This document shows, one piece after another, positions 1,256-10,043 of a stretch of DNA of 64,000 nt. The translations under genes were made by a program, and so were the position numbers. This DNA comes from Polaribacter gangjinensis. Its GTDB lineage: Bacteria; Bacteroidota; Bacteroidia; Flavobacteriales; Flavobacteriaceae. How positions within the stretch are numbered: the first letter of the stretch is position 1; each line of letters opens with the position of its first letter. The DNA lies in contig NZ_CP150662.1 in NCBI RefSeq assembly GCF_038024125.1, forward strand, positions 1,877,501 through 1,941,500, written 5' to 3'. The notes beneath the pieces were generated by a model that was given only the letters and a program-made list of their open reading frames with translations, ran no database searches and was not told where the DNA came from.

Positions 1256-2182
1256 ATGCTTCAAGTTAACCATCTTTCTTTTCAATATGTTGCCAAAAAA
1301 AATGTTTTAAAAAACATCCATTTTAGCCTAAAAAAAGGCGAACATTTGTGCATAATGGGAGAAAGTGGCTGTGGAAAATCGACCTTATTAAAGTTGATTT
1401 ATGGCTTGTTAGATGCTACTGAGGGAACTATTTTTTGGAATTCAACACCTGTTTTAGGACCCAAATTTCATTTAGTTCCTGGCATGGAATTCTTTAAATA
1501 TGTAGCGCAAGATTTTGATTTGATGCCTTATACCTCTGTTTCAGAGAACATTAAAAAATTCCTGTCTCGTTTTCATCCTGAAGAAAGTGAACAACGAACG
1601 CAAGAATTATTAGAAGTTATTGAAATGAAAGCGTTCGAAAATACCAAAGTAAAAAACTTGAGTGGTGGTCAAAAGCAACGTGTTGCAATTGCGCGTGCTT
1701 TGGCAAACGAACCTGAATTAATTCTTCTTGATGAACCTTTTGGGCAAATTGACAACTTCAAAAAAAACAGTTTACGACGAAAGTTATTTCAATATTTGAA
1801 AGAGAAAAATATCGCTTGTATTGTGGCAACTCACGACAAAGAAGACGCACTTTCGTTTGCTGATTTTTTGATGGTAATTCAACATCAAGAAATCATTGTT
1901 TTTGATTCGCCAACAACAATTTACAACAATCCTTCTCAAAAATATATTGCTGCTTTGTTTGATGATGTAAACGAAATAAAAATTGCTCAAAAAGAGCGCC
2001 TTTTATATCCACATCAACTAAAAATTGTAGAAAATTCAATCTATGAAGCAACTGTTTTAAACACTTATTATAGAGGAAATTATTGGTTGATTGAAGCTGA
2101 TTTTGAGTCTCAAAAAGTGTTTTTAAATCATCCTTTTGAAATTAAAAAAGGAACAGAAATCAAACTATTTTTTGAATTTTAA
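1256..2182 (+). CDS. ABC transporter ATP-binding protein, PotA/FbpC-like
   Basis: 308 residues. Walker A GESGCGKS (35-42), signature LSGGQ (135-139), Walker B LILLDE (155-160) and switch His193 (ATHD) are all intact, so it should hydrolyse ATP. About 90 residues after the nucleotide-binding domain look like the regulatory/TOBE-type extension of polyamine, iron(III) or sulfate importers. No permease or binding protein is encoded nearby, so the substrate cannot be named and it may pair with a distant permease. Co-directional with the preceding gene (6 bp gap). Its 3' end overlaps the convergent GreA-like gene by 23 bp. Confidence 0.85.
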   Translation: MLQVNHLSFQYVAKKNVLKNIHFSLKKGEHLCIMGESGCGKSTLLKLIYGLLDATEGTIFWNSTPVLGPKFHLVPGMEFFKYVAQDFDLMPYTSVSENIKKFLSRFHPEESEQRTQELLEVIEMKAFENTKVKNLSGGQKQRVAIARALANEPELILLDEPFGQIDNFKKNSLRRKLFQYLKEKNIACIVATHDKEDALSFADFLMVIQHQEIIVFDSPTTIYNNPSQKYIAALFDDVNEIKIAQKERLLYPHQLKIVENSIYEATVLNTYYRGNYWLIEADFESQKVFLNHPFEIKKGTEIKLFFEF

Positions 2183-2621
2183 TGCGATTTCCATCAAACA
2201 AAAATTCATCATTTTCGTGCTTCCCTAACAACAATTTTCCAATTGGAGAAGAAACAGAAATTGCAAAATAACTCGCATTTTCTATATCTATTTTTCCTGC
2301 TGAAATGCTTAAAAAATAGTTAGCTTTTGCTGTGTAAACGACACTTCCTAAATGAGCAGCATTTTGTTTTGAATTTTCTGAAATTGAAATATCAATTTTT
2401 GATAAAATTTGATTCATTTCCGAAATTCCTGCCAATTGCTGACTCGCTTTTTCCATTTCCAATTGAATCATAGCTCGCCCTGTTTCGTGTTTGTCTCCAG
2501 CAGAACTTTTGGTTTCGGATTGCAACGATTTTTGATGAGAATATATGATTTCTTCCACTGTTTGCATGCGTTTGTTGACAAACATTTTGCAATGCATTAA
2601 AAGGGCTTCTTTGATATTCAT
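2160..2621 (-). CDS. GreA/GreB C-terminal-domain protein
   Basis: 153 residues. The C-terminal half carries the Gre-factor-like core GSVVYTAKANYFLSIS and SPIGKLLLGKHENDE, matching the FKBP-like C-terminal domain of GreA/GreB; the N-terminal half is helical (about 20-85) but the coiled-coil acidic tip of true GreA is not evident. It may contact RNA polymerase like Rnk-type proteins; that is inference. Last gene of the leftward polyketide operon, overlapping the phosphopantetheinyl transferase stop by 4 bp and the convergent ABC ATPase by 23 bp. Homologues are sometimes named 3-oxoacyl-ACP synthase, apparently from their neighbours. Confidence 0.7.
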   Translation of the reverse strand: MNIKEALLMHCKMFVNKRMQTVEEIIYSHQKSLQSETKSSAGDKHETGRAMIQLEMEKASQQLAGISEMNQILSKIDISISENSKQNAAHLGSVVYTAKANYFLSISAGKIDIENASYFAISVSSPIGKLLLGKHENDEFLFDGNRIKIQKIV

Positions 2622-3175
2622 TGGCTTTTTACAATGGCAAATCCACCATAATTCCCATGGTGAGAAGTAGAAACTGAAAAACCAAGTTTTTTGTCTTTTT
2701 GATATAAAAATGGAACTCCAAATTCATTTTTTTGAACAGATGTTGCCAAAGGAACACTTGAAAGTATTTGCTCAGAAACTTGAGCAGTTTGAGATGATTT
2801 TTCATCCATCAAAAACAATTTTGAGTTCGGAATTTCATCAAAATTCTTGAAAACAATTGTATGAATACAATTTTCAGTAATTGTGGATGAAGAAAAATAG
2901 ATTTCTTCTACAAATTTTATGGTTCCTGAAGTATTAGAAATCATTGCACACTGAAACTTTTTGGGCGCAAAAAATCGATTTTGATGTTGTTGAACATGCA
3001 ATTTATAGGCAGCTTCTTTCATGCTCCAAAACAACCAAAGTTGCAAAAATGCATAATCAGAATTGACAATTTTTTCGACTTCAACATCAGTAAATTGTTT
3101 TTCTAAAAAGCCTTTTCGTTGCCAATTACTTTGGGTTTTAGCTAATTGCAAATCAACAATATCGTTGCCAATCAT
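2618..3175 (-). CDS. 4'-phosphopantetheinyl transferase superfamily protein
   Basis: 185 residues. N-terminal IGNDIVDL supplies the Mg-binding Asp (Asp5), and WSMKEAAYK (50-58) is the conserved W/F-x-x-KEA-x-K motif with the Glu and Lys used for catalysis. The C-terminal half (about 150-182) resembles the AcpS-type SVSTSHHGNYGGFAIV strand. It should move phosphopantetheine from CoA to Ser41 of the ACP encoded immediately upstream (start overlaps the ACP stop by 4 bp). Being part of the operon, it is probably dedicated to this pathway rather than to primary fatty-acid synthesis. Confidence 0.85.
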   Translation of the reverse strand: MIGNDIVDLQLAKTQSNWQRKGFLEKQFTDVEVEKIVNSDYAFLQLWLFWSMKEAAYKLHVQQHQNRFFAPKKFQCAMISNTSGTIKFVEEIYFSSSTITENCIHTIVFKNFDEIPNSKLFLMDEKSSQTAQVSEQILSSVPLATSVQKNEFGVPFLYQKDKKLGFSVSTSHHGNYGGFAIVKSQ

Positions 3176-3426
3176 TTATTGGCTAATTTTGCTTCAATAA
3201 TTTCCATAGCTGCTTTTACAGAGAGCATTTTTTCCATGGCTTCATTGTCAATTTCGATGTCAAATTCATCTTCAACATCCAAAATAACATCTACCAAATT
3301 GGCCGAATTTATCTTTAAATCCTTAATAAAATCGGTGTTTTCCGATAAGTTTGCAAAAGCCTCTTCATCTTGAATGTAAGGCTTTACAATCGTTTTTAAT
3401 TTTGAAATTAGTTCCTCTTTATTCAT
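3172..3426 (-). CDS. Acyl carrier protein of the type III PKS operon
   Basis: 84 residues using the ATG at 3424-3426, which sits 1 bp after the ketosynthase stop; a longer reading would run 36 bp into the ketosynthase gene. Predicted helices follow the ACP pattern, with the carrier Ser41 in KINSANLVDV. The canonical DSL motif is therefore NSA here, a divergence also found in carrier proteins dedicated to aryl-polyene/dialkylresorcinol-type systems. Acidic helix II (VILDVEDEFDIEI) is kept. Translationally coupled to the ketosynthase upstream and the transferase downstream. Confidence 0.85.
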   Translation of the reverse strand: MNKEELISKLKTIVKPYIQDEEAFANLSENTDFIKDLKINSANLVDVILDVEDEFDIEIDNEAMEKMLSVKAAMEIIEAKLANK

Positions 3427-3427
3427 T

Positions 3428-4702
3428 TTATTCAATATATTTTTTAAAGATAACACATGCATTTACATCTCCAAAACCAAAACTTGCTTTGGCAACAATT
3501 TGAATGTTTTTTTCAATCATTTTTGTGGGAATTTTTTCTGTTGAAATCAACGCTGAAATTTCAGGATGCACATCTTCGCAATTGATATTTGGAAAAACAA
3601 ATTGATCTTTTATTTGCAACACGGAAGCCACAGATTCAATGGCTCCAGAAGCTGCTAAACAATGACCAACTTGCGATTTTAACGAATTTATGTGCGGAAA
3701 ATCAGCTCCTTTTCTGTTCAGTGCTTTTGTCCAATTTTCAATCTCTAAACTATCTTTTGAAGTGGCTGTTAAATGTCCGTTAATTGCATCTATTTTATCT
3801 GCAGAAATATTGGCATCAATTAATGCATCTTTTATACATTTTTGAACAGCTTCAGCATTTGGTGCCGTTAAAGTTCCGCCATTTCTTTGTCCTCCAGCAT
3901 TAATATTTCCACCCAAAACTTCTGCATAAATAGTTGCATTTCGCTCTAAAGCACTTTCTAAAGATTCTAAAATCATTGCTCCTGCTCCACTTCCAGGCAC
4001 AAAGCCTGAGGCAGTTTCGCTCATGGGTCTTGAGCCTTTTTCGGGAGTTTCATTGTGTTTATAGGTCATCACTTTCATGGCATCAAAACCTCCCCAAGAA
4101 TACAAACTGCTGTCACTTGAACTGCCCACTAACATGCGTTTTGCCTTTCCATTTTGAATGCGTTCAAAACCCAATAAAATAGCTTCAGTTCCTGTTGTAC
4201 ATGCTGAGGAATTTGTAGTAACCTGATTTCCAACACCTAAAATTCCACCCAAATATGCAGAAATGCCACTTGCCATTGTTTGTACTACTGAAGTGCTTCC
4301 TAAACGTCTTACATTTTGATTGTCAATTTGATAAATAGCTTCTCTAAATTTTTCAATTCCTGAGGTACCTGTTCCAAAAATAATTCCTGTGTCATAGTCT
4401 AAATGAGAGTTTTCATCCACCAAAAATCCAGCATCTTTCCAAGCATCAATTGCAGCTATACAACCATATAAAATAGAAGTGCTATTGAATCCACGAAGTT
4501 GCAAAGGCGTTAAATATTCCGAAATTTTTTGATCGGAAATGGTTGGAATTCCTCCAATACAACAAGAAAATCCTTTGTCTTTTAAATGTTGATGAAATGC
4601 AATTCCAGATTTGCCAATTTTTATAGCGTTTGTAAAATCTTGCAAACCAACTCCATTTGGTGCAACAACTCCTAAACCTGTAATTACGACTCTATTTTTC
4701 AT
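3428..4702 (-). CDS. Beta-ketoacyl-ACP synthase, FabF-like
   Basis: 424 residues, thiolase fold. Active-site Cys168 in SSACTTGTEA, His310 in NGHLTATSKDS, Lys342 and His347 in SLKSQVGHCLAASGA form the Cys-His-His set of an elongating ketosynthase, so it should perform decarboxylative condensation of malonyl-ACP onto an acyl chain. The usual HGT triplet after the first His is HLT, separating it from housekeeping FabF. One bp separates its stop from the ACP start, and its ATG is 1 bp from the dehydratase stop. Likely elongates or makes the acyl starter that the type III PKS uses. Confidence 0.9.
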   Translation of the reverse strand: MKNRVVITGLGVVAPNGVGLQDFTNAIKIGKSGIAFHQHLKDKGFSCCIGGIPTISDQKISEYLTPLQLRGFNSTSILYGCIAAIDAWKDAGFLVDENSHLDYDTGIIFGTGTSGIEKFREAIYQIDNQNVRRLGSTSVVQTMASGISAYLGGILGVGNQVTTNSSACTTGTEAILLGFERIQNGKAKRMLVGSSSDSSLYSWGGFDAMKVMTYKHNETPEKGSRPMSETASGFVPGSGAGAMILESLESALERNATIYAEVLGGNINAGGQRNGGTLTAPNAEAVQKCIKDALIDANISADKIDAINGHLTATSKDSLEIENWTKALNRKGADFPHINSLKSQVGHCLAASGAIESVASVLQIKDQFVFPNINCEDVHPEISALISTEKIPTKMIEKNIQIVAKASFGFGDVNACVIFKKYIE

Positions 4703-4703
4703 C

Positions 4704-5144
4704 TTATTTTGCGATAATCATTCCAGCAATACTTCCTCTACAAACCAATTCGTTTTTTGCATTAAACATTTTTACAATGCACTTTAATTTATTGAATCTG
4801 AAATACACTTTTTCTGAAATAACAGTAACTTTTTCTGATGGATAAACAGGTAAAAAGAAATCTATTTCATTGGATGTCAATGCAATTTGAGGTTTTTTAT
4901 CGGATAAAATTTCATCTTTTAACAAATAAATTCCCAAACAAACAACCCCAATTTGTGCCATTGTTTCTGTTAAAATCACGCCTGGTGTAATTGGATTATT
5001 GATAAAATGACCTTCATAAAAATACTCATTTTCTTTAAATGTATAATTTCCTATAACACCATTTTCTGATATTTGCGTGATTTCATCTACAAACAAAAAA
5101 GGTTTTGTGTAAGGTAAAAATGATATAATTTTTTGTGAATCCAT
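4704..5144 (-). CDS. 3-hydroxyacyl-ACP dehydratase, FabZ/FabA-like hotdog
   Basis: 146 residues, one hotdog domain. The motif FYEGHFINNPITPGV carries catalytic His46, and Glu60 in TETMAQ lies where FabZ has its catalytic Glu. It should remove water from 3-hydroxyacyl-ACP. Separated by 1 bp from both the SDR gene upstream and the ketosynthase gene downstream in the same operon. No ketoreductase of typical FabG form is present in the operon, so that step is probably done by the housekeeping FabG. Confidence 0.88.
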   Translation of the reverse strand: MDSQKIISFLPYTKPFLFVDEITQISENGVIGNYTFKENEYFYEGHFINNPITPGVILTETMAQIGVVCLGIYLLKDEILSDKKPQIALTSNEIDFFLPVYPSEKVTVISEKVYFRFNKLKCIVKMFNAKNELVCRGSIAGMIIAK

Positions 5145-5145
5145 A

Positions 5146-5943
5146 CTACCTTAAACTTTCTCCACCATCAACTTTTAAGATGGTTCCATTCATCCATTTT
5201 GATTCTTCTTTGACCATCAAATACACCACATTTGCAACATCTTCAGGAGTTGTTAATCGTTCAAAAGGATTTCTCACTAAAGTGTGTTTTTTAATTTCAT
5301 CGCTATTTGGAATTCTATTTAAAGACTTTGTATTTGTTACTCCAGCTTGAATGCAGTTGGCTTTAATTCCGAATTTTGCAAACTCTAAAGCGATGTTTCT
5401 TGTAATTGCCTCCAAAGTTACTTTCGCAGCTGAAACTGCAGCATAATTTTCCCAAGGTTTTACATTTCCTTCGCTTGTAAAACTGACGATTCTTGCATCA
5501 TCAGAAAATAGTTTAGCTTCAAAAATAGCTTTGAACCAATCATACAAACTAATTGCCATAGCATTGATGGTAATTTGAAAATCGTCATTTTGTAAAACCT
5601 CATTTTCATTCGAAAACATGGGTTTTAAATTTCCTTTTGCTATGGAATGAATCAGGGTTTTTATAGTTCCTAGATTTCCTATTTCTTGTTTAATTTCATG
5701 GATTATTTCTGTTCTTTTATCAGGATTTAATGCATCAATATTATAAGATAAAAATCTGATTTGATGATTTTTAACATCTTCAAAATCTTTTTCAATGGCA
5801 GTCATTTGTACTCTAGAATTTCTATGAACTACACAAATATTCATGCCGTGTTTTGCCAACTTTTTAGCAGTTGCCAAACCCAAACCACTTGAGCCTCCCA
5901 AAATAATTGCCCATTCATTTTTGTCTTGAAAATCTTTGTACAT
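5146..5943 (-). CDS. SDR-family reductase, enoyl-ACP reductase (FabI/FabL)-like
   Basis: 265 residues from the ATG at 5941-5943. A longer reading from 5982 would translate an interspersed repeat and is rejected. Cofactor loop GGSSGLG (16-22). The catalytic pair is Tyr167-x6-Lys174 (YAAVSAAK), the spacing of FabI/FabL enoyl reductases, not the Yx3K of ordinary ketoreductases. It is therefore a candidate enoyl-ACP reductase giving saturated acyl chains, completing a KS-DH-ER module with the two genes downstream. C-terminal NGTILKVDGGESL is the standard SDR ending. Confidence 0.82.
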   Translation of the reverse strand: MYKDFQDKNEWAIILGGSSGLGLATAKKLAKHGMNICVVHRNSRVQMTAIEKDFEDVKNHQIRFLSYNIDALNPDKRTEIIHEIKQEIGNLGTIKTLIHSIAKGNLKPMFSNENEVLQNDDFQITINAMAISLYDWFKAIFEAKLFSDDARIVSFTSEGNVKPWENYAAVSAAKVTLEAITRNIALEFAKFGIKANCIQAGVTNTKSLNRIPNSDEIKKHTLVRNPFERLTTPEDVANVVYLMVKEESKWMNGTILKVDGGESLR

Positions 5944-5949
5944 GTTACT

Positions 5950-5990
5950 ATATATTATAAGATGCTGAAACAAATTCAGCATGACAAAAT
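5950..5990. repeat. Flavobacterial palindromic interspersed repeat (TTCAGCAT type)
   Basis: ATGCTGAA (5962-5969) and TTCAGCAT (5975-5982) form a perfect 8-bp inverted repeat with a 5-bp loop, followed by GACAAAATG. The sequence is of a kind I recall as widespread between genes in Flavobacteriaceae, often mistranslated as MLNLFQHLI at protein N-termini, exactly as would happen here. It lies between the type III PKS and SDR genes inside an operon. Confidence 0.65.
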
Positions 5991-5994
5991 GTTG

Positions 5995-7047
5995 TTACCA
6001 TTCTAATAAAATTCGTTGAGCAGAAAAACCGGGTCCAAAACTCAACATCAAACCTCTTTCTCCTTTTGTGGGATTTTGATCCATAAATCGTTCTAAAACA
6101 TACAAAACAGTTGCACTTGACATGTTGCCAAACAATCGTAAAACCTCTTTAGTGTCATCAATATTTTTGCCTAAAACGCCAAATAAATCCTCTACTGTTT
6201 GCACAATTTTTTTTCCTCCTGGATGAAAAATTAGGTAATGTATATCATCAATAGTAAGGTTATTTCTCTCTAAAAATGGATGAACAATTGCTGGAAAATG
6301 ATCGGAAATTTTTTGAGGAACTTCTTTGTCTAAAATCATTTGTAAGCCCGAATTTACCAAATTAAAACCCATCATGTGAGTTGCATCATAAAAATGATAC
6401 ATGGATTCATCAATGATTTCAGGACCTTTATCATCCTCAAAAGAAGACAAAATTACGGCTGATGCTCCATCTCCAAAAATGGCAGCACTCACAATATTTG
6501 CCATTGAAAAATCATTCAACTGAAAAGTTGCTGTTGGAGCTTCAACTGCAATTACTGCTGCTCTTTTATTTGGATTTGCTTTTAAAAAATTTTTGGCATA
6601 AATCATTCCAGAAACACCTGCTGCACAACCCATTTCTGTAACTGGCAATCGTACAATATCTTGTTTCATCGCAAGAGAATTAATCAAATAGGCATCCATT
6701 GAAGGAATCATAATTCCTGTGCAACTTACTGTAATTATATAGTCGATTTCTGTGGCTTTTAAATGAGCTTTTTCTAACGCTTTTTTTAGTGATTCTGTAG
6801 CTAATTTTACAACTTCTCTTGCGTAAATAGTATTTTTTTCTTCAAAAGATGAGGCTGTAAAAACTTCTTCAGGACTCATAATTGAGTAGCGTTTATCAAC
6901 ACCTGCACCTTCAAAAAGTTTGATTACTTTGCGTTGAAATCGTTCTTCTTGATCTTGCATCCAAAGTTTTACAAAAGGAATAATATCTTTTGTCTCTCGA
7001 AAATATTGGGGTAGTTGCTTTGCAACTGAAATTATTTTAACTGCCAT
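5995..7047 (-). CDS. Type III polyketide synthase (chalcone-synthase-like)
   Basis: 350 residues, typical length for a homodimeric type III PKS. Catalytic triad is complete: Cys141 in TEMGCAAGVSGM, His275 in LIFHPGGKK, Asn308 in RLFGNMSSATVL; the C-terminal loop reads FGPGFSAQ (337-344). It should load an acyl starter and extend it with malonyl-CoA to an alkylpyrone, alkylresorcinol or acylphloroglucinol. It sits directly between a methyltransferase gene (1 bp gap upstream) and a fatty-acid-type module downstream, which suggests a long acyl starter made on the operon's own ACP. The exact cyclisation mode cannot be read from sequence. Confidence 0.92.
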   Translation of the reverse strand: MAVKIISVAKQLPQYFRETKDIIPFVKLWMQDQEERFQRKVIKLFEGAGVDKRYSIMSPEEVFTASSFEEKNTIYAREVVKLATESLKKALEKAHLKATEIDYIITVSCTGIMIPSMDAYLINSLAMKQDIVRLPVTEMGCAAGVSGMIYAKNFLKANPNKRAAVIAVEAPTATFQLNDFSMANIVSAAIFGDGASAVILSSFEDDKGPEIIDESMYHFYDATHMMGFNLVNSGLQMILDKEVPQKISDHFPAIVHPFLERNNLTIDDIHYLIFHPGGKKIVQTVEDLFGVLGKNIDDTKEVLRLFGNMSSATVLYVLERFMDQNPTKGERGLMLSFGPGFSAQRILLEW

Positions 7048-7758
7048 TTATTTTTGTATAATCCATAAAAAACGGAATGCCCATTTCCATGATATTTGTG
7101 ATGTAACTTTTAATTTTTCAGCCATTTTTTCAAGTTCATTTCTTTTAAATCCTCTTAAAACAGAGGTTAATCCGTCTTCAATAATCATCTTATTTTTGAT
7201 AAAAACCGAGAGCAACATAAACAAATAATACGCAACTTTATGTCTGTGCAAATCGTTTACGACAATGCCTATTTTGGTTTGTTTGATAGTATTCTGCAAA
7301 AACTTCACCAATTCTTCTTCTTTGAAATGATGTAAAAATAAGGTTGCTAAAACCACATCAAATTGTCTGTTTTGAAATTCTTCTGAAAAAATATCTTGTG
7401 TTTGAAAACTGATTTCTGGATATTTTTTTGACAATTCATTTGCGTACAAAATCGCAGTTGGATTTGCATCAACACCTATCAATTTGAATATAAAACCATT
7501 TTTTCTTCCAAAAATTGCCACATCACGCAAAATATCTCCATGACCACAACCAATATCAACAATGGTAATTTCTTCAGTTTTTGGATGATTTTTTAAAATG
7601 GTTTTTAATCCATGAATTGTTACTTTATTTCCTCCTAACCAGCGATTTATGTTTTCTAATTTGTCTAATGTATCACGCAATAAATCACCTCCAATAGAAA
7701 AATCATCCATCAATTCTTCTTTATCTGTTCTGTATTTTGTGCTGATAAAAAAATCCAT
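7048..7758 (-). CDS. Class I SAM-dependent methyltransferase
   Basis: 236 residues. SAM-binding motif I is IVDIGCGHGD (66-75), with an acidic strand-2 end at LIGVDAN and a motif-IV-like DVVLATLFLHHF. Likely methylates the type III PKS product (O- or C-methylation). Its ATG overlaps the upstream flavoprotein stop (TGATG), and it is 1 bp from the PKS gene, so the three are translationally linked. This trio of PKS, methyltransferase and flavoprotein parallels the srsA-srsB-srsC arrangement of Streptomyces griseus that makes methylated alkylquinones; the analogy is by gene types only. Confidence 0.82.
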   Translation of the reverse strand: MDFFISTKYRTDKEELMDDFSIGGDLLRDTLDKLENINRWLGGNKVTIHGLKTILKNHPKTEEITIVDIGCGHGDILRDVAIFGRKNGFIFKLIGVDANPTAILYANELSKKYPEISFQTQDIFSEEFQNRQFDVVLATLFLHHFKEEELVKFLQNTIKQTKIGIVVNDLHRHKVAYYLFMLLSVFIKNKMIIEDGLTSVLRGFKRNELEKMAEKLKVTSQISWKWAFRFLWIIQK

Positions 7759-8891
7759 CAGATTTTTATTGGTTTTCCATGGGTTTGTTGAATAATTACA
7801 GGTATTAAAAATGGTAATTTCCTTAAAATCTGTAATAAAAAATTCGCTATTCTGTGATTTCTAAACAATCTTGCAATAAAATGACCTGCTTTTAAACGCC
7901 ATTTAAACGCTTGATTCCATTGCCTAATATACTCTTTTTCAAGGTAGCTTCTTGAGGCGTTTTCATCATTTAGATAATTTAGAATCAATTTAGATGCAAT
8001 TTGCGCAGACTGAATTGCCATGCTCATGCCATTTCCACACAAAGGATGAATCATTCCTGCTGCGTCTCCACACATAATCAAATGATTTTCAACAGGCTTT
8101 TTGGTTTCAAAAGAAATTTGGCTGATGGATAAAGGTTGCTCAAAAAGCGGAGTTGATTTTTGAAACATTTCTTTTAAAAAACTATTTTTAAAAACCACAT
8201 TTTCTTGAAAATCGTCGATATTTTTATATTCTTTAAAAGATGAAAAATTGGTGATATAACACAAATTAATCGTGTTATTTTCAACATTTGACACTCCACA
8301 ATAACCTCCTTTAAAATTATGAAGCGCCACTAAATTCGATGGAAAATTTCCTTTGACATGAATTTTTACGCCTAAATAAGGCGATTTTTTTTGAATGAAA
8401 TCTCGTTCCATTTTTACATCTAACAATGAACGTTTGCCAAAAGCTCCAATAACAATTTTTGATGTAAATTGCTGATTTTCTTTAGTTTCTATGTAAAAAA
8501 CATCCTTTTTAAAGTTGATATTTACAACAGTGTCTTGTAAAATTTTAGCGTCATTTTCAATCGCTTTTTTTGCCAAAACTTCGTCCAATGTAAATCTTGA
8601 AATACCAAATCCACCTAAAGGTAATTTTGCTGAAATCAATTTATTATTGGTTGTTGACAATTGAAATTCATCAATTTTTATAGCGCCAAAATCAAATGGA
8701 TTTACATCCAAAAAAGCCAGATAAGGCAACACTTCATTGGAAATATATTCTCCACAAACTTTGTGTTTTGGATAGTCATTTTTTTCAATCAACAACACTT
8801 TTTTACCAAATTTTGATAAGTGAATGGCATTGCACAAACCAGCCAAACCTCCTCCAATAATCAGAACATCAAAATTTTGGGGTGTTTTCAT
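7758..8891 (-). CDS. FAD-dependent oxidoreductase, geranylgeranyl-reductase/hydroxylase family
   Basis: 377 residues. N-terminal dinucleotide fold IIGGGLAGL (about 11-19), a second conserved segment HKVCGEYIS (about 43-51), and the FAD-ribityl motif CGDAAGMIHPLCGNGMS near residue 275. The C-terminal helix region is basic and hydrophobic (residues 340-370), compatible with membrane association. In this context it could hydroxylate the resorcinol ring to a quinone or reduce double bonds; sequence alone does not decide. Stop overlaps the methyltransferase start; 3 bp separate it from the next upstream gene. Confidence 0.82.
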   Translation of the reverse strand: MKTPQNFDVLIIGGGLAGLCNAIHLSKFGKKVLLIEKNDYPKHKVCGEYISNEVLPYLAFLDVNPFDFGAIKIDEFQLSTTNNKLISAKLPLGGFGISRFTLDEVLAKKAIENDAKILQDTVVNINFKKDVFYIETKENQQFTSKIVIGAFGKRSLLDVKMERDFIQKKSPYLGVKIHVKGNFPSNLVALHNFKGGYCGVSNVENNTINLCYITNFSSFKEYKNIDDFQENVVFKNSFLKEMFQKSTPLFEQPLSISQISFETKKPVENHLIMCGDAAGMIHPLCGNGMSMAIQSAQIASKLILNYLNDENASRSYLEKEYIRQWNQAFKWRLKAGHFIARLFRNHRIANFLLQILRKLPFLIPVIIQQTHGKPIKI

Positions 8892-8894
8892 TTG

Positions 8895-10004
8895 TTATAT
8901 TGTCAAATCTGCTAATTCTTTCCCAACCAAACTACCAATTGCAACTCCCATTCCTCCAAGTCTTATTCCACAAAAAATATGATTAGAAACCTGTTTTACA
9001 ATGGCTTTTTTCTGATTTCCAACACCCATAATGCCACTCCATCTTTGGTCAATTTCAAAAGGAATATTGGGTAAAATAATATCTCTCAACATTTTTTCTA
9101 ATTGATTTTGAATCAATTCTGTTTCACCAAACTCAAAGGTGTTTTCGCTGGTAAAATCTAAATTTCTTCCTCCTCCAAATAAAATTCGATTGTCGATATT
9201 TCTAAAGTAATAATAGCCTTTATCTAAATGAAAAGTTCCTTTGCTGTGTAAATTTTTTATTGGTTTTGTAATTAACACTTGCGCTCTTGCAGGTTGTACA
9301 TTTTCTTGTAATAATTGTGAAGCAAAACCATTGGTTGTTATCAATAGTTTTTTTGTGTAAAAATCAAATCTATTGGTTTTTATGTGAACTTTATCTTCTT
9401 TTTCGATAAAAGATTCTAGGTGAATTGAATTGACAATTTTAACTCCTTTTTTCTGTACTTTTTGCAACAAATGAGCCATCATTTTTCCAGTATCTAATTG
9501 ACCTTCAAAGTTGTTTACACTGTATTGTTGATGTATATTTTGAAAACCAAAAATGTTATTTGAAGTACTAAAAACAACTCCTTTGAAAATCGGTTTTAAT
9601 AGCTGATTGATGTGTTCATTTTTGGAAATACAGGCTTCAAAAAAATCGGCTGAGTCAAACAATTCAAAACCTTTGTTTTGTTGAAAATCAATTTTTCTAT
9701 CGCCTAAATTTTTTCGTAATAATTGCAATCCTTCCCAACGTTTTTTGACCAATTCAAACACTTCTTGTTCAGAATGTGTTTGCAAATCATCAATAATTTC
9801 TGACAAACTTCCAAAGCATGCAAAACCAGCATTTTTAGTACTTGCTCCTTGAGGCAATATGCCTTTTTCTAGGATTAAAATTCTGGCTTTTGGATAGATT
9901 TTTTTCAGTTGTAAAGCGCAATTCAAACCCACAATTCCACTGCCAACAATCGTAAAGTCGATGTTGGAAAACCACTCTTTCAATTCCCAATAACTTAGAT
10001 TCAT
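8895..10004 (-). CDS. FAD-dependent oxidoreductase, DAO (glycine/D-amino-acid oxidase) family
   Basis: 369 residues. FAD-binding motif IVGSGIVGLNCAL (about 19-31), E at the end of strand 2 (ILILEKG), and the DAO hallmark GASTKNAGFACFGS (about 53-66). The C-terminal segment IFCGIRLGGMGVAIGS is the usual second FAD-contact region. First gene of the leftward operon, 3 bp from the next flavoprotein. Family members oxidise amines or amino acids (PuuB, SoxA, ThiO); its role with the polyketide genes is unclear and it may only be co-transcribed. Confidence 0.78.
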   Translation of the reverse strand: MNLSYWELKEWFSNIDFTIVGSGIVGLNCALQLKKIYPKARILILEKGILPQGASTKNAGFACFGSLSEIIDDLQTHSEQEVFELVKKRWEGLQLLRKNLGDRKIDFQQNKGFELFDSADFFEACISKNEHINQLLKPIFKGVVFSTSNNIFGFQNIHQQYSVNNFEGQLDTGKMMAHLLQKVQKKGVKIVNSIHLESFIEKEDKVHIKTNRFDFYTKKLLITTNGFASQLLQENVQPARAQVLITKPIKNLHSKGTFHLDKGYYYFRNIDNRILFGGGRNLDFTSENTFEFGETELIQNQLEKMLRDIILPNIPFEIDQRWSGIMGVGNQKKAIVKQVSNHIFCGIRLGGMGVAIGSLVGKELADLTI

Positions 10005-10043
10005 GAGTTATTTTTTCGGTTAGTAATTTAGTTCTATTTTGTT

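What the first reader, a model, noticed from the sequence alone, without database searches (positions are those of the whole stretch)
2160..10004. Type III PKS fused by operon to a dedicated fatty-acid module
Ketosynthase, dehydratase, Yx6K enoyl-reductase-like SDR, ACP and its own phosphopantetheinyl transferase are co-directional and mostly overlapping or 1 bp apart with a complete-triad type III PKS, a methyltransferase and flavoproteins. It suggests that the type III enzyme takes a chain built on the operon's ACP, which is then methylated and oxidised to an alkyl resorcinol or quinone lipid. The type III PKS/methyltransferase/flavoprotein part parallels Streptomyces srsABC, but I know of no fully characterised pathway with this gene set in Bacteroidota.
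Basis: partly seen in the sequence, partly recalled or inferred. Interest (0 to 1): 0.8.

Follow-up and report, generated by a model that had tools for sequence, protein, structure and literature searches.

The report
Polyketide-lipid operon with private fatty-acid module
Many Bacteroidota, mostly marine, carry a conserved gene set that seems to build a fatty chain on its own carrier protein and hand it to a ring-forming enzyme to make an unknown ring-bearing lipid; the parts stay together in evolution even where the operon has broken in two, but the product is not known.

Summary
Confirmed: a ten-gene minus-strand operon (2160-10004) in a Polaribacter-like genome encodes an FAD oxidase, a GGR/UbiH-type flavoprotein, a methyltransferase, a type III PKS with intact triad, a Yx6K SDR, FabZ-like DH, FabF-like KS, ACP, PPTase and a GreA-like protein. 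It is widespread. The PKS belongs to one long-branched clade (56-91% identity in the family; also Pedobacter, Spirosoma, Saprospiraceae) that sits with flavoprotein, methyltransferase, KS and ACP in 61 of 61 loci examined. PKS and KS co-occur almost strictly: genus 79 both, 4 PKS-only (all at contig ends), 0 KS-only, 83 neither; family sample 101, 3 (one unexplained), 0, 195. In two single-contig genomes the operon is split by about 90 and 355 kb, yet both halves persist. The SDR is dispensable (20 of 61 loci lack an intact one); the FAD oxidase and GreA-like gene are accessory. Best reading: a dissociated type II module loads an ACP whose chain primes the PKS; the ring is then methylated and flavin-oxidised. 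Product class (resorcinol, pyrone, quinone, halogenated phenol) is open. New variant of a known kind: srs/hid/pkq trio plus ars-like chain supply.

The parts
8895..10004 (-). FAD-dependent oxidase of the DAO family; accessory, first gene of the run
   Evidence: PF01266 118 bits; co-directional near the core in 29 of 61 loci
7758..8891 (-). flavoprotein of the GGR/UbiH/flavin-halogenase fold; core
7048..7758 (-). SAM methyltransferase, PRK06202-like; core
   Evidence: Pfam Methyltransf_25; PRK06202 145 bits vs cut-off 243; 61 of 61 loci
5995..7047 (-). type III polyketide synthase, C141/H275/N308, F228 at the CHS-Gly256 (inferred ArsB-Trp281) position; core
5146..5982 (-). SDR with Yx6K, nearest FabL enoyl reductase; optional
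   Evidence: FabL model 145 bits vs cut-off 328, PDB 3oic 94 bits; intact in 41 of 61 loci
4704..5144 (-). FabZ-like 3-hydroxyacyl-ACP dehydratase, H46/E60; core
   Evidence: PF07977 55 bits, cut-off 23; tblastn hit in 59 of 60 fetched loci, not L139
3428..4702 (-). FabF-like ketosynthase, C168/H310/H347, NGHLTAT motif; core
   Evidence: TIGR03150 273 bits vs cut-off 494; 30% identical to the genome's FabF; 61 of 61 loci
3172..3462 (-). acyl carrier protein, Ser53 (likely start about 3426); core
   Evidence: NCBIfam ACP models E 1e-11, below cut-off; Ser in 58 of 58 rows; tblastn hit in 60 of 60 fetched loci
2618..3175 (-). 4'-phosphopantetheinyl transferase; frequent
   Evidence: PF01648 42 bits, cut-off 25; 43 of 61 loci
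2160..2621 (-). GreA-like protein of unknown role; accessory, last gene
   Evidence: PF01272 23.8 bits, below cut-off 26.9; 31 of 61 loci

Best explanation
A phenolic/pyrone-lipid operon in which a private, dissociated (type II) chain-building unit supplies the starter of a type III PKS. Proposed steps: (1) the PPTase arms ACP Ser53; (2) the KS and DH, with host FabD and FabG and either the operon SDR or a host enoyl reductase, elongate a chain on that ACP; (3) the type III PKS takes the acyl (or beta-ketoacyl) chain straight from the ACP, extends it with malonyl-CoA and cyclises it; (4) the methyltransferase methylates the ring; (5) the flavoprotein oxidises it, most simply by ring hydroxylation to a methylated hydroquinone/quinone. 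Shown by computation: the gene set, intact active sites, one type III PKS clade, near-strict KS/PKS co-occurrence, retention after splitting. Inferred: every chemical step, the ACP-to-PKS transfer, the use of host FabD/FabG, and the product.
For: Core order flavoprotein-MT-PKS-(SDR)-DH-KS-ACP in 60 fetched loci (DH missing in one) plus the window and in named Polaribacter, Tenacibaculum, Aquimarina, Ulvibacter, Flavobacterium, Pedobacter, Spirosoma and Saprospiraceae loci. Co-occurrence: genus 79/4/0/83, family sample 101/3/0/195 (both / PKS only / KS only / neither); the 4 genus exceptions lie at contig ends. Splits: G160 (PKS | DH, about 90 kb) and G733 (SDR | DH, about 355 kb), both single-contig genomes, keep both halves. 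Invariant active sites. The KS is a diverged paralogue, 30% identical to FabF; of four PF00109 hits in the genome only these two look like elongating KSs to me. Closest structures are PKS11 and CylI; CylI takes its chain from ACP-dependent type I PKSs (PMC8086630, passages) and Azotobacter ArsB/C take acyl chains from the ACP domain of ArsA (PMC6274091, passages).
Against: No ketoreductase or malonyl transferase in the operon, so the module is not self-sufficient. The SDR is repeatedly lost (8-9 state changes on the tree), DH is missing in one locus (L139), and one assembly (G687, 99% complete) has flavoprotein-MT-PKS-SDR without a KS at E 1e-110. PPTase is not found at the locus in 18-19 of the others. 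No direct evidence for ACP-PKS contact. F228 replaces the resorcinol-associated Trp. The flavoprotein resembles halogenases at least as much as hydroxylases.
Confidence: 0.55

Rival explanations
1. The type III PKS acts first: primed by malonyl-CoA like DpgA or THNS it makes a small aromatic unit that the KS, DH and SDR then elongate on the ACP, as in aryl-polyene or flexirubin-type logic.
For: DpgA is the best NCBIfam hit of the PKS (170 bits), and THNS 1u0m is its third-best distinct PDB sequence after two PKS11 sequences.
Against: DpgA's cut-off is 425 bits and three Bacteroidota type III PKSs of other lineages score about the same (159.5-178.5 bits), so the hit is generic. No DpgB/C/D, aromatic-acid ligase or second KS in the operon. 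Closest structures are the chain-accepting PKS11 and CylI.
Confidence: 0.1
2. Same pathway, but the ring is an alkyl-alpha-pyrone rather than a resorcinol or quinone, O-methylated and otherwise tailored.
For: The position I equate with ArsB Trp281 is Phe in all 131 distinct clade sequences tested; Trp281 to Gly turned ArsB into a pyrone synthase (PMC6274091, passages). PKS11, the closest structure, is titled as an alkylpyrone enzyme.
Against: Phe is still bulky and aromatic; CylI, a resorcinol former, has Leu at the aligned place and PKS11 has Trp (alignments, my reading), so the residue is not decisive. A hydroxylase-type flavoprotein has no evident use on a pyrone.
Confidence: 0.2
3. The flavoprotein is a halogenase and the product is a halogenated, methylated alkylphenol.
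Confidence: 0.1
4. The KS/DH/ACP unit makes an unrelated fatty acid and is merely linked to the PKS.
For: It has no KR of its own, and in split genomes it forms a separate unit.
Against: 0 KS-only genomes among 166 in the genus and 0 among 299 in the family sample at the thresholds used; both units retained after splits in single-contig genomes.
Confidence: 0.05

Closest known systems
Streptomyces srsABC / mycobacterial and streptomycete pkqABC (polyketide quinone) operons
   Same: [quoted passage not shown] the name srsABC is recalled).
   Different: Described as three-gene units; here a KS, DH, ACP and often SDR and PPTase are added, and the PKS clade has Phe where that paper reports Trp in PkqA and others (equivalence inferred).
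hidABC (hierridin) of cyanobacteria and the planctomycete alkylresorcinol operon
   Same: Methyltransferase-oxidoreductase-type III PKS trio; planctomycete PKSs gave pentadecyl- and heptadecylresorcinols in C. glutamicum (PMC10896814, abstract and passages).
   Different: No KS/DH/ACP module mentioned in the passages seen; a different gene order.
Azotobacter vinelandii arsABCD
   Same: A dedicated fatty-acid synthase feeds type III PKSs by acyl transfer from ACP (PMC6274091 and PMC13291983, passages).
   Different: ArsA carries its ACP as a domain of a multidomain (type I, PUFA-like) synthase; here single-domain proteins do the job. No MT/flavoprotein is named for ars in the passages seen.
Cylindrocyclophane CylB/CylD/CylH/CylI
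   Same: Free ACP start, chain passed to a type III PKS that makes an alkylresorcinol (PMC8086630, passages); CylI is among the closest structures.
   Different: Elongation by type I PKSs, halogenase and dimerising enzyme; cyanobacterial.
Flexirubin/dialkylresorcinol (DarA/DarB) clusters of Bacteroidota
   Same: A resorcinol lipid pathway in the same phylum (PMC3072089, passages).
   Different: The ring comes from DarA/DarB-type enzymes; this PKS scores 30 bits on the DarB model (cut-off 550).

Membership tests
type III polyketide synthase | Chalcone/stilbene synthase N and C domains above curated cut-offs | tested here: met
   PF00195 77.7 and PF02797 70.5 bits, cut-off 27
type III polyketide synthase | Cys-His-Asn triad | tested here: met
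   C141, H275, N308, invariant in 61 of 61 rows
type III polyketide synthase | Fold | tested here: met
   [not shown]
srs/pkq/hid-type phenolic-lipid trio | Type III PKS next to a SAM methyltransferase and an FAD oxidoreductase | tested here: met
   61 of 61 loci; the same trio without KS in L159, L165, L166 and a Deinococcus radiodurans plasmid
srs/pkq/hid-type phenolic-lipid trio | Methyltransferase of the family found in other trios (PRK06202) | tested here: inconclusive
   145 bits, cut-off 243; trio MTs of L165 and L159 score 275 and 124
srs/pkq/hid-type phenolic-lipid trio | UbiH-type aromatic hydroxylase | tested here: inconclusive
   TIGR01988 77 bits vs cut-off 225; fold shared by hydroxylases, halogenases and reductases
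srs/pkq/hid-type phenolic-lipid trio | Alkylresorcinol-derived methoxy or quinone product | not testable with these tools
   Needs LC-MS or NMR
ars-type FAS-fed type III PKS | Dedicated chain-building genes in the same operon | tested here: met
   KS 60, ACP 60 and DH 59 of 60 fetched loci
ars-type FAS-fed type III PKS | Multidomain type I FAS (ArsA/ArsD) | tested here: not met
   All FAS functions are separate small ORFs
ars-type FAS-fed type III PKS | Acyl transfer from ACP to the PKS | not testable with these tools
   Needs purified proteins
DpgA (3,5-dihydroxyphenylacetyl-CoA synthase) | NCBIfam NF042429 cut-off 425 bits | tested here: not met
   170 bits
Flexirubin/DAR cluster | DarB-type ketosynthase (NF053539 cut-off 550) | tested here: not met
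   PKS 30 bits; other genes of such a cluster were not searched for
Flavin-dependent halogenase | WxWxIP motif (recalled; may vary between subfamilies) | tested here: not met
   0 of 61 sequences
Geranylgeranyl reductase | YxWxFP motif (recalled) and TIGR02032 cut-off 158.8 | tested here: not met
   0 of 61 sequences; 114.6 bits

The most novel reading that the evidence does not exclude
A fully dissociated type II ACP-to-type III PKS relay: a dedicated KS/DH/ACP unit that exists only to prime one type III PKS clade (Phe228 type), making a new class of methylated, flavin-oxidised lipids, possibly polyketide quinones, in about a third of the sampled family genomes (101 of 299) and in some other Bacteroidota.
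Probability: 0.45. Interest if true: 0.75.

Novelty: new variant of a known kind. Interest (0 to 1): 0.55.

Why it matters
Type III PKS clusters are about a tenth of all biosynthetic clusters counted in Flavobacteriaceae (10.74%, PMC10734526 passage; 9%, PMC7440613 passage), and I found no product assigned to this architecture in the searches named. The work shows that this PKS clade has one nearly fixed gene set and names the parts to test: which are core (flavoprotein, MT, PKS, DH, KS, ACP) and which are optional (SDR, PPTase, FAD oxidase, GreA-like). If the ACP primes the PKS, it would be a simple single-domain system for studying how a carrier protein docks with a type III PKS. If the product is a quinone it could bear on respiration in these bacteria, as polyketide quinones do in Streptomyces and mycobacteria (PMC9927152, passages).

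Tried and rejected
DpgA-like reading: dropped, because DpgA scores are generic across type III PKSs. Flexirubin membership: dropped on the DarB score; in the genome's PF00109 search two of four hits lie in loci (L169, L170) whose main ORFs I read by eye as thiolases. F228 as proof of a pyrone or resorcinol: dropped, since the CylI and PKS11 alignments follow no simple rule. I inferred the CHS Gly256 / PKS11 Trp230 / ArsB Trp281 equivalence from spacing to the catalytic His and to a conserved Gly; ArsC (3vs8) was not among the 60 rows listed, so it was not checked directly. The KS structure search listed mostly FabF/FabB-type enzymes. Plasmid search for the PKS gave only hits under 60% identity, the eight listed at 32-34%. 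Promoter scan: 39 sites against 43.5 expected, no information; 39 bases separate the dinB stop from the first gene, so co-transcription with dinB is possible. The koreenceine paper PMC6498172 looked relevant but concerns Pseudomonas. One search (YceI literature) gave a listing only. Rows dropped before counts: all 166 genomes have some hit because FabH-like proteins (about 25-30% identity, E 7e-14 or weaker) also match; I counted only PKS hits at 76% identity or more, including partial hits at contig ends. In some searches the cut was E 1e-35; for the KS it was 1e-130 and 1e-110. Named-locus scan: six of 80 loci lack KS; L198, L229, L231, L251 and L270 are short contigs, and L235 is the same contig as G818:C40, whose KS is on another contig.
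Full report
What is there. The window is bases 1877501-1941500 of a single-contig 2,937,607-base genome. Its closest named proteins come from Polaribacter, so I take the genus to be Polaribacter. On the minus strand ten ORFs run from 10004 down to 2160 with gaps of 3, -1, 0, 12, 1, 1, -35, -4 and -4 bases. Domains: DAO oxidase, GGR/UbiH-type flavoprotein, class I methyltransferase, type III PKS, SDR, FabZ-like DH, FabF-like KS, ACP, PPTase, GreA-like protein. No ketoreductase, malonyl transferase or ligase is in the run. The KS is only 30% identical to the genome's FabF; of the four PF00109 hits in the genome one is FabF, one is this KS, and in the other two loci the main ORFs look to me like thiolases.

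Conservation of the set. I searched the PKS in 166 genomes of the genus, 299 drawn from the family and 395 drawn from the phylum. In the phylum sample 33 of 395 genomes carry it at 66% identity or more; the next listed hits are at 37% or less. In the family sample the full-length clade members range down to 56% (G734). I fetched 20-kb regions for 60 hits that I chose for diversity and contig length, 58 from the family and 2 from other families. With the window, 61 of 61 have flavoprotein, MT, PKS and KS. By tblastn the 60 fetched loci have flavoprotein, MT, KS and ACP in 60, DH in 59 (not L139), SDR in 41 (one broken), PPTase in 41, GreA-like in 32 and FAD oxidase in 29. By ORF calling over all 61: PPTase 43, intact SDR 41, GreA-like 31, FAD oxidase 29, a co-directional YceI-type lipid-binding protein 14. 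Of 80 named loci, 79 carry flavoprotein and 79 MT ORFs and 74 the KS; five of the six without KS are short contigs, and the sixth is the G818 case below. They include Polaribacter, Tenacibaculum, Psychroserpens, Aquimarina, Ulvibacter, Zunongwangia, Salinimicrobium, Flavobacterium, Pedobacter, Spirosoma, Membranihabitans and Saprospiraceae.

Co-occurrence. Genus: PKS and KS both in 79 of 166 genomes, PKS only in 4, KS only in 0, neither in 83. Weak FabH-like matches (about 25-30% identity) occur in all 166 and were left out. The four PKS-only cases (G071, G087, G130, G131) sit on contigs that end before the KS would fit. Family sample: both 101, PKS only 3, KS only 0, neither 195 of 299. The three are G625 (a different, 32% identical PKS), G835 (contig ends after DH) and G687, where flavoprotein-MT-PKS-SDR is followed by other genes and no KS was found; that one is unexplained. 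The Fisher p values ignore shared ancestry, and the two samples overlap slightly, so I lean on the next point more.

Split operons. In G160 (one contig, 2.69 Mb) FAD oxidase-flavoprotein-MT-PKS lies about 90 kb from DH-KS-ACP-PPTase-GreA. In G733 (one contig, 3.16 Mb) flavoprotein-MT-PKS-SDR lies about 355 kb from DH-KS-ACP. G693 shows the same break, with a gene of like length (800 vs 801 aa) before DH, so it may share G733's event. G818 shows it on two contigs of what names as a MAG, where mis-binning or a large insertion cannot be excluded. All four breaks fall just before the DH. Two natural units thus persist together without close linkage, which is better evidence of shared function than linkage itself; at least two independent events are likely, not proven.

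The SDR. Its Yx6K motif and FabL similarity support an enoyl reductase. It is the one catalytic gene of the chain-building set that comes and goes: no intact copy in 20 of 61 loci, with 8-9 changes on a PKS+KS+flavoprotein tree. In 12 same-genus genomes without it at the locus, 11 gave no hit at E 1e-20 and one gave a 33% identical SDR. In 6 of 61 loci a Y1-type transposase gene lies between PKS and DH, four of them without the SDR and two with it. So host enoyl reduction may suffice, or the chain differs in saturation.

Mechanism and precedent. A trio of type III PKS, methyltransferase and FAD oxidoreductase makes methylated alkylresorcinols or quinones in Streptomyces, mycobacteria, cyanobacteria and Planctomycetota (PMC9927152, PMC8086630 and PMC10896814, passages). 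A dedicated synthase feeding a type III PKS is known from Azotobacter ars (type I) and from CylB/D/H to CylI (PMC6274091, PMC13291983 and PMC8086630, passages). The present operon joins both ideas, with single-domain type II parts. Nothing here shows acyl transfer or a product.

Literature. Searches (open-licence PMC papers only) gave counts of such clusters in Flavobacteriaceae (PMC10734526, PMC7440613, passages) but no product or characterised pathway with this gene set in Bacteroidota. Subscription papers are not covered, and I read passages, not whole papers.

Verdict. The gene set is real, widespread and very probably functionally coupled; the product and the ACP relay are inferred. New variant of a known kind, interest 0.55.

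Noticed in passing
L091, L092, L093, L095 (between PKS and DH); also L109, L113: A Y1-type (IS200-like) transposase gene of about 186-194 aa sits where the SDR is found in relatives and the SDR is absent; in L109 and L113 it stands after an intact SDR (6 of 61 loci in all).
   Followed up: partly
14 of 61 loci, e.g. L105:6686-7225: A YceI-domain protein joins the operon at different positions (before the flavoprotein, or after the PPTase). YceI proteins are recalled to bind isoprenoid quinones, which would suit a lipid or quinone product.
   Followed up: partly
L109, L112, L113, L115, L120 (after PPTase): An MMPL-family exporter gene follows the operon in five loci (Pfam checked on one), suggesting lipid export.
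   Followed up: no
L117-L144, 18 of 61 loci: A lipocalin-like lipoprotein and a protein that looks OmpA-like by eye lie directly upstream and co-directional in many family members; part of the operon or only conserved synteny is unknown.
   Followed up: no
L278 (G687): Flavoprotein-MT-PKS-SDR without any detected KS, with a TPR histidine kinase next in line; the only unexplained exception to co-occurrence.
   Followed up: partly
window 8895-10004 and 2160-2621: The FAD oxidase and the GreA-like gene are found in 29 and 31 of 61 loci, sometimes next to each other upstream of the flavoprotein; no role assigned.
   Followed up: no
window 10005-10043: Only 39 bases lie between the dinB stop and the first operon gene, with no convincing promoter, so the operon may be read from upstream of dinB.
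   Followed up: partly
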